Assembly: GCF_037975245.1 (NCBI RefSeq)
Contig: NC_092572.1
Location: 3,883,501 to 3,947,500 of the forward strand
Reading direction: 5' to 3'
Length of the DNA: 64,000 nt
Origin: Apostichopus japonicus
Lineage: Eukaryota; Echinodermata; Holothuroidea; Aspidochirotida; Stichopodidae
A program made the translations under genes and the position numbers. The notes beneath the pieces were generated by a model. The model searched no databases, was not told the DNA's origin, and saw only the letters and a list, made by a program, of their open reading frames with translations. Below are positions 3,017-42,256 of the stretch, one piece after another (within the stretch, counting starts at the first letter, position 1; every line of letters starts with the position of its first letter).

Positions 3017-3127
3017 GAAATGAAGTCCGCTCCCCTCTAGGCAGTCTTGATTTCTTGAGAAATGTTTCTGATATTCTTGGAGATAAATTCTCTGCAAAAT
3101 CAATCCAAGAACTCGCAGAACCAAATA
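3017..3127 (+). CDS. ACOX3: ACOX3-like exon (first visible)
   Basis: Acceptor ttatttcttgcag ends at 3016 and donor GTAAGG starts at 3128. The exon enters with two bases of a split codon and leaves with one. It reads NEVRSPLGSLDFLRN, then ILGDKF and ELAEPN, matching the ACOX3 segment before the RWLV helix. Confidence 0.85.
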
Positions 3128-39700: not shown

Positions 39701-42256
39701 TAGAAGTGGAAGGATGCGGCTACCACCATCTCATACGAATCGACATTCTTCCTCATTCATTCCACAATGAATCAAACTTTATAATGAAAACTTTCAACGT
39801 TAGATCTCGTCTGGCTGTTTCTTCTGTTCCGACTGTACTCTCTTGCCATTGTCCTGAGCTTTGTATATTGTTTTACTGCATGTTTTAAAATGTCTTATAT
39901 TTTCATATTCTTACAATTGTTTGGTACTGTAACGTTTTAGGTTTTCATATTTAAATGTTTGTATCTCATGTTCTGTTTCATATGAGCATGCAATTACCCT
40001 TGTGGTTTAATAAAGTTGATCTAATCTAATCTAATCTGGTATTAATACGATCCCAGAATATTTCCTTTTGTTACTTGCACAAATGACATCTTTAATATTA
40101 CTCACAAAGTGTTAACTGATGACTCACTCCAACAAATCCTATGCGACAAGTTTGTTGACAGCCAAATATTGACATACATGTAACCACTTAACTTGTGTAA
40201 AGTTAACCCTGCACAAATGGGGAATTACACAACACACCTGCAGCAACCTCAAAACATTTAAGCCATAAATTACCTTATTTTTCTTCCCATCGACTTCAAA
40301 GACTGAGATGTTTTCCATGCGGTAGATCTCATCCCCGGGAGGATGGCGCCAGATACACTTAGCCATATGCCTGCGTAGGATCGTGACACTCTTTGCATAC
40401 TTCAGGCAGAATTCGCAGATGTAGAGCTTTGGAAGTCGAGAGTATTCTTCGGGGTATGGGGAAGAGTACCAGGTGTCCATTTCAAAGCGACCAAATTCTA
40501 TCTTCTTTAAACCCCCGTCCACTGATCGGCCTTCGAAACCTCTTTCCTGAAAAGATGAGATCAATAATATCGTTGTTTTACTATGGACAGATCAGATGTT
40601 AACTCTTTTACCGGTGCCGAGATTATGACAATAGCCAATGGCAGGGGACAGGGTGAGGGGAAGGTGGGCTGGAGTAGCAGAAACTGGACATCTATTAACA
40701 ATCATCTGCTGGTAACTTTTATGGTGACCTAATTAGACCGACCCCCCCCCCAGGGTAAGCCAAAAAAAGGGGTTCTTTATTTAAATTATGAAGGGCATAT
40801 ATTTTGTATGACTGGTAGATAAGGGAGGTATGGAAATGGAAACCTTGAAGACACCGACAACTAATGATGGATTCATCAAATCAAAGCTGGCTTCACAAAC
40901 CATTTTAGATCCATTCCAAAGGGACATATTTTTTTTTTCTCTTGAATTTTCAGAGAGTTGGTGGGACCCCCAGCACAATGAAATAACAAGCCAAGGATGA
41001 GCCTATAGTATATGTTGGTTATTAACCTGTTTTATAATTTGCCAAGTTCCAGTTTTCTGTTACCTGTCATTCAGCCTCTGAAGAAGATCCTGCTAGGATC
41101 GAAATGTCAGGCCCACTTACTTTTACACATTCTCTTACATAGAGGCTCTTTAGTGGATAAGCAGTTTGCTAACAGTTTTTGTTTTATTCGTTTTTAATTT
41201 GAAGATCTATTTCATGCAGCATAAGTAGGTGTTATTACTAACTGTAAAACCTTTACTTTTACGTAATGCTGTGATATAGAACTCTTCTTCTACATCTGCC
41301 AAGCAGCCTGAGACATGATAACGTACAGTTTGTTACCATACCATGACAACTATCGCTCTACATCATGCATGGCAGCATGTTACTATTTAACCTACCATAT
41401 CCTCTGCTGCCCTCATCTGTGCTTTTCTGAACAATTCCAGGTCATATTACCATGACAACCATCGCTCTACATACTACATGGCAGCATGGTACTATTTAAC
41501 CTACCATATCCTCTGCTGCCCTCATCGGTGCTTTTCTGAACAATTCCAGGTCATATTACCATGACAACTATTGCTCTGCATAATACATGGCAGCATGGTA
41601 CTATTTAACCTACCATATCCTCTGCTGCCCTCATCTGTGTTTTTCTGAACAATTCCAGGTCATATTACCATGACAACTATCACTCTATATAATACATGGC
41701 AGCATGGTACTATTTAACCTACCATATCCTCTGCTGCCCTCATCTGTGCTTTTCTGAACAATTCCAGGTCATATTACCATGACAACCATCGCTCTACATA
41801 CTACATGGCAGCATGGTACTATTTAACCTACCATATCCTCTGCTGCCCTCATCGGTGCTTTTCTGAACAATTTCAGGTCATATTACCATGACAACTATTG
41901 CTCTGCATAATACATGGCAGCATGGTACTATTTAACCTACCATATCCTCTGCTGCCCTCATCTGTGTTTTTCTGAACAATTCCAGGTCATATTACCATGA
42001 CAACTATCACTCTATATAATACATGGCAGCATGGTACTATTTAACCTACCATATCCTCTGCTGCCCTCATCTGTGCTTTCCTGAACAGTTCCAGGTCATA
42101 TTGTGAGGTCAGCCCGTCTAGGAGTGGTTCTCTGGACTTGTGATACTCATCCCGATGCTGTCTGTTCCGGTCAATCTGGTCTGGGATCAGGTCCCTTCGC
42201 TGTCTTCTCAGTTCCTGAACCTGGTATCGTTTCTGCTGTTGTATTCGTTGTGGGCT
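30537..42256 (-). CDS. KAT7: MYST-family histone acetyltransferase, KAT7/HBO1-like (C-terminal six exons, 5' partial)
   Basis: KAT7/HBO1 acetylates histones H3 and H4 in the nucleus within BRPF- or JADE-containing complexes. In transcript order the exons 42256-42050, 40546-40274, 38670-38530, 37783-37690, 36771-36625 and 30748-30537 join in frame to 357 residues, covering the pre-MYST helix and the whole MYST domain. The C2HC zinc finger is in exon 2 ([21 protein letters not shown] with C, C, H, C). The autoacetylated lysine is in [10 protein letters not shown] in exon 3. The acetyl-CoA loop is [11 protein letters not shown] in exon 4, and the catalytic glutamate is in [12 protein letters not shown] in exon 5. 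[13 protein letters not shown]-like [27 protein letters not shown] and the end [12 protein letters not shown] fit KAT7 rather than KAT5 or KAT8. Missing 5' exons should encode the N-terminal disordered region and the CCHHC finger. Two exon ends are tandemly amplified in the following introns. Confidence 0.92.
31365..31476. mobile_element. Fold-back / MITE-like inverted repeat
   Basis: Two 40-nt arms, 31365-31404 (gtgaggttatctagagaata...) and 31437-31476 (...attcgttagataacctcac), are inverted complements with about three mismatches around a 32-nt spacer. It is probably a short palindromic MITE. No clear target duplication is visible. Confidence 0.7.
33180..33530. repeat. Diverged direct duplication, two copies offset about 205 bp
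   Basis: Both copies carry gacttnctaactatac, a tgtagnaacagg stretch, cattgtcaattgacat-like sequence and gagtcatgtnaataaggtca. Copies are about 33180-33340 and 33385-33530. The divergence suggests age. Confidence 0.55.
33950..34196. repeat. Dispersed short repeat, three direct units here and one inverted copy at 31565-31620
   Basis: The motif ggatnaacatgaaacttggt with acatat occurs at about 33967, 34076 and 34170. A longer version (accagacattgttggatcaa) matches the reverse complement of 31565-31620. I do not recognise the family. Confidence 0.5.
35376..35540 (-). other. GC-richer island with a strong minus-strand donor, possible untranslated first exon
   Basis: In an AT-rich intron, about 165 bp is GC-richer, contains ccgccatgcggg and ends in minus-strand gaaagcg|GTAAGTC (GT at 35375-35376). 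The only ATG frame in it is short. It could be a first exon of an internal promoter or a non-coding RNA. No partner exon is assigned; a minus-strand acceptor near 33585 (aaatttcag) is one candidate. Confidence 0.2.
36625..36771 (-). CDS. KAT7: KAT7-like exon with catalytic glutamate
   Basis: Encodes [38 protein letters not shown] and SASEISIK. Acceptor tttttacag, donor GTTTGT (weak). The Glu of [11 protein letters not shown] is the MYST catalytic base by family knowledge. Confidence 0.92.
37136..37783. repeat. Four tandem copies (about 156 bp) of a KAT7-like exon end plus donor
   Basis: The donor-proximal landmark aacttactgaagtctatcag occurs at 37215, 37370, 37527 and 37683, with spacings of 155, 157 and 156. 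The copy at 37683 is the true exon 37690-37783. The other three lie downstream in the transcript's intron and each contain about 70 bp of exon end (through tactgtggaagggt-ag-atacagga) plus the donor. Between them is repeated intron sequence (gttctaacattatctgag, ttacaagattaccaaatgac, agtagtgtgttcttcatatg). Confidence 0.94.
37690..37783 (-). CDS. KAT7: KAT7-like exon with acetyl-CoA binding loop
   Basis: Encodes [18 protein letters not shown] and [14 protein letters not shown]. The R-KGYGK loop binds acetyl-CoA in MYST enzymes. Acceptor cttacag, donor GTAAGTTAA. Its 3' part and donor are repeated three more times downstream. Confidence 0.93.
37784..38529. other. KAT7-like intron
   Basis: AT-rich intron of 746 bp between phase-matched exons. 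Nothing else recognised. Confidence 0.7.
38530..38670 (-). CDS. KAT7: KAT7-like exon with autoacetylation lysine
   Basis: Encodes [34 protein letters not shown] and [13 protein letters not shown]. Acceptor ttttcttccag, donor GTAAGG. 47 codons, phase 0 at both ends. Confidence 0.94.
38840..39395 (+). mobile_element. Non-LTR retrotransposon 3' remnant
   Basis: On the plus strand, antisense to the host gene, a broken frame reads [13 protein letters not shown] followed by a stop, then [15 protein letters not shown]. This resembles the LINE C-terminal 'P-LWN-LP---R--S---FK--L---L' signature. It ends in AT-rich sequence and a cattattattactatta tail near 39370-39390. It lies in the intron between KAT7-like exons 2 and 3. 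Confidence 0.6.
39650..40047 (+). mobile_element. Non-LTR retrotransposon 3' end with (atcta)n tail
   Basis: Contains a degenerate C-terminal coding segment parallel to the better one at 52240-52490 (ccacccact, attcctagaagtggaagg, attcattccacaatg). It then has ggtttaataaagttgatct and a short tandem tail ctaatctaatctaatctgg at about 40020-40037. Truncated and non-functional. Confidence 0.7.
40274..40546 (-). CDS. KAT7: KAT7-like exon with MYST zinc finger
   Basis: Encodes [37 protein letters not shown], the zinc finger [21 protein letters not shown] region, and [18 protein letters not shown] to VDGKKNK. 91 codons, phase 0. Acceptor catcttttcag, donor GTAATT. Confidence 0.95.
41064..41125 (+). 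ncRNA. Hammerhead-ribozyme-like motif, copy 1
   Basis: ctgaaga (41078-41084), then a perfect 5-bp stem gatcc/ggatc (41086-41090 with 41096-41100), then gaaa (41101-41104) and gtc (41106-41108), in the order of a hammerhead core with a minimal stem III. Flanking gcct and aggc can pair as stem I. The canonical core is CUGANGA-stem-GAAA. Such motifs with very short stem III are known from Penelope-like retroelements. No reverse transcriptase is visible nearby. Confidence 0.4.
41391..42109. repeat. Seven tandem copies (109 bp) of a KAT7-like exon end plus donor
   Basis: The landmark cctaccatatcctctgctgc (minus-strand donor GTAGG with the exon end) falls at 41391, 41500, 41609, 41718, 41827, 41936 and 42045, exactly 109 bp apart. 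The 42045 copy is the true exon end. The other six lie in its downstream intron. Copies 1-3 and 4-6 match pairwise (catctgtgctt/accatcgctctac; catcggtgctt/tattgctctgc; catctgtgttt/tatcactctat), so a 327-bp three-unit block was itself duplicated. Confidence 0.96.
42050..42256 (-). CDS. KAT7: KAT7-like exon upstream of the MYST domain (first found)
   Basis: 69 codons: [57 protein letters not shown] and [12 protein letters not shown]. The REPLL--LTS-YDL-LFR-AQ-RA-ED pattern is specific to KAT7. Donor GTAGGT; the acceptor, read as cctaactag, is weak. Further 5' exons are not identified. Confidence 0.9.

What the first reader, a model, noticed from the sequence alone, without database searches (positions are those of the whole stretch)
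3017..42256. Five separate tandem duplications that each cross an exon edge, in three neighbouring genes
Direct reading shows exon-edge repeats at 4307-4963 (7 copies, acceptor side), 21187-21441 (2 copies, donor side), 27128-27465 (2 copies, terminal exon end), 37136-37783 (4 copies, donor side) and 41391-42109 (7 copies, donor side). Unit lengths differ (93, 130, 176, 156, 109), so this is not one mobile element. Chance placement of intronic minisatellites would rarely overlap exon ends this often. It suggests either that this genome forms tandem duplications very readily, with exon sequence acting as the conserved seed that keeps them recognisable, or a process tied to splice junctions. I cannot separate these from one window: exon-derived repeats are easier to notice, which is an ascertainment bias.
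Basis: partly seen in the sequence, partly recalled or inferred. Interest (0 to 1): 0.9.

Follow-up and report, generated by a model that had tools for sequence, protein, structure and literature searches.

The report
Tandem repeats straddling sea-cucumber splice sites
Short stretches of DNA that include the edge of an exon have been copied head-to-tail in several genes here; this looks like a by-product of a genome that duplicates short segments very readily, of a kind already described in amphioxus, with the new twist that the downstream edge of exons is hit far more often than the upstream edge.

Summary
The five tandem arrays are real. Four cross a splice site (ACOX-like acceptor, TBRG1-like donor, two KAT7 donors); the fifth crosses a stop codon inside a terminal exon. 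The genome is very probably the sea cucumber Apostichopus japonicus (published HiFi assembly). I located 283 conserved exons elsewhere in it by homology, blind to repeats: 21 of 283 (7.4%) carry a tandem copy crossing a splice edge, so the phenomenon is not local to this window. In the 241-exon main sample random placement predicts 12-14 crossings; 18 were seen (P 0.06-0.18): no clear targeting of splice junctions. The window (4 against 0.7-1.0 expected) is a cluster noticed after the fact. Junction-spanning arrays are known from amphioxus as 'mirages'. Not reported in anything my searches showed me is the asymmetry: 18 donor-side against 3 acceptor-side (P=0.0015; 12:2 by gene, P=0.013; a small held-out sample gave 3:0), not explained by detection power. 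Best reading: ordinary tandem duplication plus unequal exchange, splicing at the exon-proximal site so that copies fall into the intron, and selection that tolerates copies after a donor but removes most copies that disturb branch point, polypyrimidine tract and AG. No RNA, reads or relatives could be examined.

The parts
4309..5009 (+). ACOX-like gene: seven head-to-tail copies (unit 93 bp, first copy 99 bp) of intron end + exon start; the last copy (4873-5009) is the complete exon, the six before it are decoy acceptors
   Evidence: TRF 4324-4957; acceptor positions and translations, in-frame stop behind each of the six decoys; PF01756 on the spliced tail
21085..21446 (+). TBRG1-like gene: exon 21085-21246 and a second, 130-bp downstream copy of exon end + donor + intron start
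   Evidence: reading on past the first donor gives VFVSIRL-stop; FYRN/FYRC/INO80E domains on the spliced protein
27127..27453 (+). TBRG1-like gene: two copies of a 176-bp unit across the stop codon (27243-27245); not a splice edge
37131..37783 (-). KAT7 gene: exon 37690-37783 plus three decoy copies (157 bp) of exon end + donor
   Evidence: PF01853 search itself reported two of the decoys as separate matches; gap-free KAT7 alignment across this exon junction; decoy use gives a stop
41339..42256 (-). KAT7 gene: exon 42050-42256 plus six decoy copies (109 bp) of exon end + donor, with a three-unit block duplicated (units 2,3 repeated as 5,6)
   Evidence: decoy use gives AAEDMVG-stop; this junction lies outside the part aligned to solved structures

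Best explanation
These are minisatellite-like tandem duplications that happen to include an exon edge ('mirages'). Step 1 (inferred): a segment of about 30-390 bp (units measured) is duplicated head-to-tail at a roughly random place in the gene. Step 2 (shown by the block structure of one array): the array grows by unequal exchange or slippage. Step 3 (indirectly shown): the splice site next to the complete exon is the one used, because only that choice gives the expected protein, so the other copies, most with intact GT or AG, become intron. In the four splice-edge arrays of the window, reading into a decoy copy meets a stop. Step 4 (inferred from counts): selection filters the outcome. A copy added after a donor leaves the first donor and its short context untouched and is tolerated; a copy added before an acceptor puts a competing AG upstream and can separate the real acceptor from its branch point, so most are lost.
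For: Arrays are everywhere: 6.9% of 239 kb around unrelated exons; 53 of 73 events touch no exon edge. Edge crossings fit random placement: 18 seen, 11.8-14.1 expected. 21 of 283 homology-located exons are crossed (hand-checked). Asymmetry 18 donor:3 acceptor, P=0.0015; by gene (my grouping by proximity) 12:2, P=0.013; predicted beforehand and met 3:0 in a held-out family. Spike-in detection 78/110 acceptor, 87/110 donor; corrected for that P=0.0017. Non-crossing arrays are balanced, 24 upstream and 29 downstream, but within 60 bp of the exon 2 against 12 (Fisher P=0.011), as a branch-point exclusion zone would give. KAT7 units 2 and 5 identical, 3 and 6 99.1%. KAT7 aligns gap-free to 6maj across the 37690 junction. 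Stops behind decoys.
Against: Donor crossings alone exceed random placement (15 against 5.9-7.0, P 0.001-0.006), which a pure filter does not explain; slower decay of copies that contain exon, or a donor-linked mutation bias, could add to it. TRF-only counts were about 1.7-fold above the null. The asymmetry was noticed after the first sample and the held-out sample has only 3 events. Several events share genes. One of the 18 donor cases (C21:16415230) is a copy that stops 3 bp short of the donor, one (C4:23993222) was first rejected and counted, and several have only 8-10 bp of exon. No RNA, reads or relatives were available, so use of the exon-proximal site is inferred.
Confidence: 0.75

Rival explanations
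1. Donor-linked mutation: something about 5' splice sites or intron starts in this genome (for example transcription-associated breaks) generates tandem duplications there, so the donor excess is mutational rather than filtered.
For: Donor crossings 15 against 5.9-7.0 expected; 12 non-crossing arrays start within 60 bp behind an exon match against 2 before one.
Against: Further from the exon the two sides are alike (24 against 29 in all), and exon-match ends are fuzzy so that some near arrays begin at or inside the donor. The null is rough because flanks are short.
Confidence: 0.12
2. Functional arrays: decoy splice sites are kept to make poison or alternative transcripts that regulate the genes.
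For: By eye, decoy GT or AG is intact in 19 of 21 donor arrays and 4 of 4 acceptor arrays including the window; decoy use in the window arrays gives premature stops.
Against: Exon and intron parts of the copies diverge about equally (90.4% and 88.4%), as for unconstrained DNA; 7% of exons in housekeeping chaperonins, myosins, kinesins and SNF2 proteins is too common for a dedicated device (inference); young copies keep splice signals without selection.
Confidence: 0.06
3. Assembly artefact: collapsed or expanded repeats in the assembly.
For: Tandem repeats are a classic source of misassembly; PMC3087553 reports a misassembled mirage in the amphioxus draft (passage).
Against: Copies differ by many substitutions, arrays are under 1 kb, and the matching published assembly was made from PacBio HiFi reads (passages of PMC10344927). 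Reads themselves were not examined.
Confidence: 0.03
4. Chance cluster of ordinary intronic minisatellites with no role of splicing at all, the donor/acceptor asymmetry being a fluke.
For: Overall crossing count fits random placement; window picked after the fact.
Against: Asymmetry P=0.0015 (0.013 by gene) and a 3:0 held-out result in the predicted direction.
Confidence: 0.1

Closest known systems
Amphioxus 'mirage' minisatellites (Adh3, globins BflGb6 and BflGb9, TnC, PGBD5; passages of PMC3087553 and PMC3902484)
   Same: Tandem duplications of an exon-intron boundary, both acceptor side (Gb6) and donor side (Gb9); units of 150-160 and 157 bp in globins, 60 and 108 bp in PGBD5; most copies keep AG/GT signals; concerted evolution within the cluster; expected protein preserved.
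   Different: Different phylum (echinoderm by inference); here quantified on 283 exons and shown to be donor-biased. The normal mRNA splicing and the haplotype and somatic length instability reported for amphioxus could not be tested here.
Variable internal tandem repeats at exon-intron boundaries in human segmental duplications (passages of PMC2812944)
   Same: Tandem repeats at exon-intron boundaries; possible route to new introns.
   Different: There, variation between recent paralogs with transcript support; here single-copy housekeeping genes and no transcript data.
Intron gain by tandem genomic duplication (potato RdRp, PMC4974935; Drosophila, PMC2891723; seen in search listing only)
   Same: Same starting event: duplication of a segment holding splice signals.
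   Different: No new intron is shown here; the copies extend an existing intron.

Membership tests
mirage minisatellite | tandem repeat unit that includes an exon-intron boundary | tested here: met
   four of the five window arrays and 21 of 283 sampled exons
mirage minisatellite | many, not all, copies keep AG/GT splice signals | tested here: met
   by eye: 19 of 21 donor arrays and 4 of 4 acceptor arrays have at least one decoy with GT or AG in place
mirage minisatellite | regular mRNA is made despite the repeats | not testable with these tools
   no RNA data; indirect: proteins spliced by hand at the exon-proximal sites match PF01853/6maj and PF01756 without repeated material; the 5ys9 alignment has a two-residue gap at the ACOX junction
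mirage minisatellite | length instability between haplotypes or somatically | not testable with these tools
   one haploid assembly; the block duplication in the 41339-42102 array is only indirect
intron gain by tandem genomic duplication | a new intron spliced within former exon sequence | not tested
   no transcripts; reading only: the second TBRG1-like copy has a C-rich tract and CAG before it and an intact donor
mobile element or introner insertion | one repeated sequence shared between loci | tested here: not met
   units differ in length and sequence and each derives from its own exon edge

The most novel reading that the evidence does not exclude
In this sea cucumber a steady supply of tandem duplications across splice junctions, on the order of one exon in fourteen, is filtered by the splicing machinery in a directional way (donor-side copies about six times as frequent as acceptor-side copies), so that the standing pattern is a natural genome-wide experiment on splice-site choice and a reservoir for intron and mini-exon gain; part of the donor excess may even be a donor-linked mutation process.
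Probability: 0.45. Interest if true: 0.65.

Novelty: new member of a known kind. Interest (0 to 1): 0.45.

Why it matters
Each such array offers the spliceosome several near-identical donors or acceptors within a few hundred bases. If the frequency and the donor bias hold genome-wide, thousands of natural constructs exist for asking how the exon-proximal site is chosen, what makes upstream decoy acceptors harmful, and how often such copies become new introns or exons. It would also show that mirages, which the papers seen here describe in amphioxus, occur in an echinoderm too.

Tried and rejected
Rejected: a splice-junction-specific process for all edges; conserved exon seed as main cause; a common mobile element (different units). 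The present-day coverage null (random intron points lie in arrays 7-8% of the time, about 30 of 400 expected, 11 seen) was set aside in favour of the collapsed-unit null because it counts every copy of an array.

Dropped or ambiguous rows: two of the 21 exons with self-BLAST hits are not crossings because the HMM match ran past the real donor (C17:167393, C15:19574419); two were left out as unclear (C14:15073379, would be donor; C18:1312235, a copy of the exon end 400 bp upstream). One crossing (C17:5072146) came from TRF only. C4:23993222 was first judged no crossing (reading, note) and counted. C21:16415230 was counted although its copy ends 3 bp before the donor; without it 17:3. Automatic splice-site refinement (crashed, one search ran) was too unreliable (128 acceptors and 123 donors of 200 scored above 2) and was not used; match ends plus reading by eye were used instead. 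In one search two of 22 arrays gave no spanning alignment, and the TBRG1 edge was set one base off. Sample use: 241 of 267 matches (five of the rest are the window's own KAT7 rows, the others mostly long open frames) and 42 of 59. COX1 is open for 517 codons under tables 9, 5 and 4 alike; table 9 was chosen by a conserved Asn motif that I recall.

Literature: searches showed no report of mirages in sea cucumbers and none of a donor/acceptor bias; the library lacks most subscription papers, and the original Adh paper was not seen.
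Full report
What was checked. TRF on the window returns the five arrays of the finding at the stated places. I read the surrounding sequence and spliced the three genes by hand. Gene 1 (plus strand) carries PF01756 (acyl-CoA oxidase, 1.1e-47) and ends in SKL; gene 2 (plus) carries FYRN, FYRC and the INO80E model and is TBRG1-like (name recalled); gene 3 (minus) carries zf-MYST and MOZ_SAS and its best solved relative is KAT7, 6maj, E 1.7e-122. 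Four arrays cross a splice site: the ACOX-like acceptor, the TBRG1-like donor and two KAT7 donors. The fifth crosses the TBRG1-like stop codon at 27243-27245.

Anatomy. In the ACOX-like gene the complete exon is the last of seven copies (4873-5009); starting at any of the six upstream acceptors meets an in-frame stop after 30-32 codons. In the donor arrays the complete exon comes first; reading on past it gives VFVSIRL-stop...EEHTTVIW-stop and AAEDMVG-stop. Only the site next to the complete exon gives the expected protein: KAT7 aligns gap-free to 6maj from residue 82 to 287 of the spliced query, which covers the 37690 junction but not the 42050 junction at residue 69. The ACOX-like tail aligns to 5ys9 with a two-residue gap near the array junction and no repeated material. 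In the 41339-42102 array units 2 and 5 are identical and 3 and 6 are 99.1% alike, so a three-unit block was duplicated, a mark of unequal exchange or slippage.

Which genome. G000 has 671,581,487 bases in 35 contigs and the window is C12:3883501-3947500. The published A. japonicus HiFi assembly has 671.60 Mb, 34 scaffolds and 23 chromosomes of 18.21-46.02 Mb (passages of PMC10344927); the largest and smallest chromosome-size contigs that I saw are 46.04 and 18.20 Mb. The mitochondrial COX1 reads as one open frame under the echinoderm code among others. The species is therefore an inference, a strong one.

Sample blind to repeats. I located exons by Pfam matches of MOZ_SAS, TCP1/Cpn60, myosin head and kinesin and fetched 200 exons with about 600 bp on each side and 41 with 300 bp: 241 exons, 153 loci, 270,880 bp. 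TRF on the first 239,496 bp gives 52 arrays of period >=30 covering 6.9%. TRF and self-BLAST hits were then read by eye: 18 of 241 exons have a tandem copy crossing a splice edge, 15 on the donor side and 3 on the acceptor side. Dropped and doubtful rows are listed under Tried and rejected.

Is the splice junction a target? Joining TRF and self-BLAST gives 73 events: 15 donor, 3 acceptor, 2 unclear, 53 touching no edge. Placing the units at random expects 11.8-14.1 crossings; 18 were seen, P 0.06-0.18. An earlier TRF-only count gave 11 against 5.7-6.8 in 400 edges. So up to about twofold enrichment is not excluded, but a splice-tied process is not needed. The window itself, 4 against 0.70-0.96, is a cluster chosen after the fact; in the sample too several genes hold two or three arrays.

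The asymmetry. Non-crossing arrays are balanced overall (24 upstream, 29 downstream of the nearest exon), but within 60 bp of the exon the numbers are 2 and 12 (Fisher P=0.011). I wrote down the prediction 'about 3 crossings in about 40 exons, donor above acceptor' before fetching 42 exons of a new family, SNF2: 3 crossings, all donor. Pooled: 21 of 283 exons (7.4%, interval 4.7-11.1%), 18 donor and 3 acceptor, P=0.0015; by gene, grouped by proximity, 12 donor-only, 2 acceptor-only and one with both, P=0.013; with the window 21:4. Artificial two-copy duplications at 8% divergence were found in 78 of 110 acceptor and 87 of 110 donor trials, so detection is not the cause (corrected P=0.0017). 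Turning off low-complexity masking on the 241 exons added no further acceptor case.

Mechanism. Inference: after duplication across a donor the order is exon-donor-copy-donor, and the first donor keeps all it needs, a handful of intron bases. After duplication across an acceptor the order is acceptor-copy-acceptor-exon; an extra AG now lies upstream, and the true acceptor keeps its branch point only if the duplicated unit held it. Three of the four acceptor arrays have units with more than 30 bp of intron before the AG (C19:15108933, C22:15811491, C16:12356799); the ACOX-like one has a short intron part and would have to use exon-derived sequence upstream. This explains the 60-bp zone without arrays before acceptors and the shortage of acceptor crossings. 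What it does not explain is that donor crossings alone exceed random placement (15 against 5.9-7.0). Slower decay of exon-containing copies may contribute (exon part 90.4%, intron part 88.4% identical, 14 of 20 arrays, P=0.12), and a donor-linked mutation bias is not excluded.

Known or new. Tandem duplications of exon-intron boundaries were described in amphioxus Adh3, globins, TnC and PGBD5 and named mirages, with normal mRNA and an intron-gain model (passages of PMC3087553 and PMC3902484). The window arrays meet the structural definition; normal mRNA and length instability could not be tested. Searches showed no report from sea cucumbers and no donor/acceptor bias, in a library without most subscription papers. 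I file the finding as a new member of a known kind, with a quantified frequency and an unreported (as far as those searches show) asymmetry.

Noticed in passing
window 44528-45553 (-) and 56557-57673 (+): Two genes of the Sulfotransfer_2 family (PF03567, 4.6e-10 and 2.1e-6; of the second only 56557-57165 was scanned) flank the KAT7 region and look free of introns in the part read.
   Followed up: partly
window 1-1832, 48098-49887, 59462-60732, 63333-63953: Large ordinary satellite-like arrays (42, 31, 29 and about 40 bp units) away from the exons that I called.
   Followed up: no
L003 816-1400 and L169 331-601: Units of about 46 and 44 bp in which each copy has an AG-ending pyrimidine-rich or CTAACAG-like stretch in front and an intact donor behind, i.e. 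arrays of mini-exon-like units.
   Followed up: no
L117 (C18:1312235): A copy of the exon end with donor lies about 400 bp upstream of the exon, not downstream; perhaps a remnant of a larger duplication or of an alternative exon.
   Followed up: no
G000:C29:14745-31219: Several COX1-like matches with TGA codons on a contig other than the mitochondrial one (C35), in pieces: a nuclear copy or an unplaced mitochondrial contig.
   Followed up: no
window 21290-21366: The second TBRG1-like copy is preceded by a C-rich tract ending in AAGCAG and followed by an intact donor, so it could in principle be spliced as a short in-frame exon (reading only).
   Followed up: no
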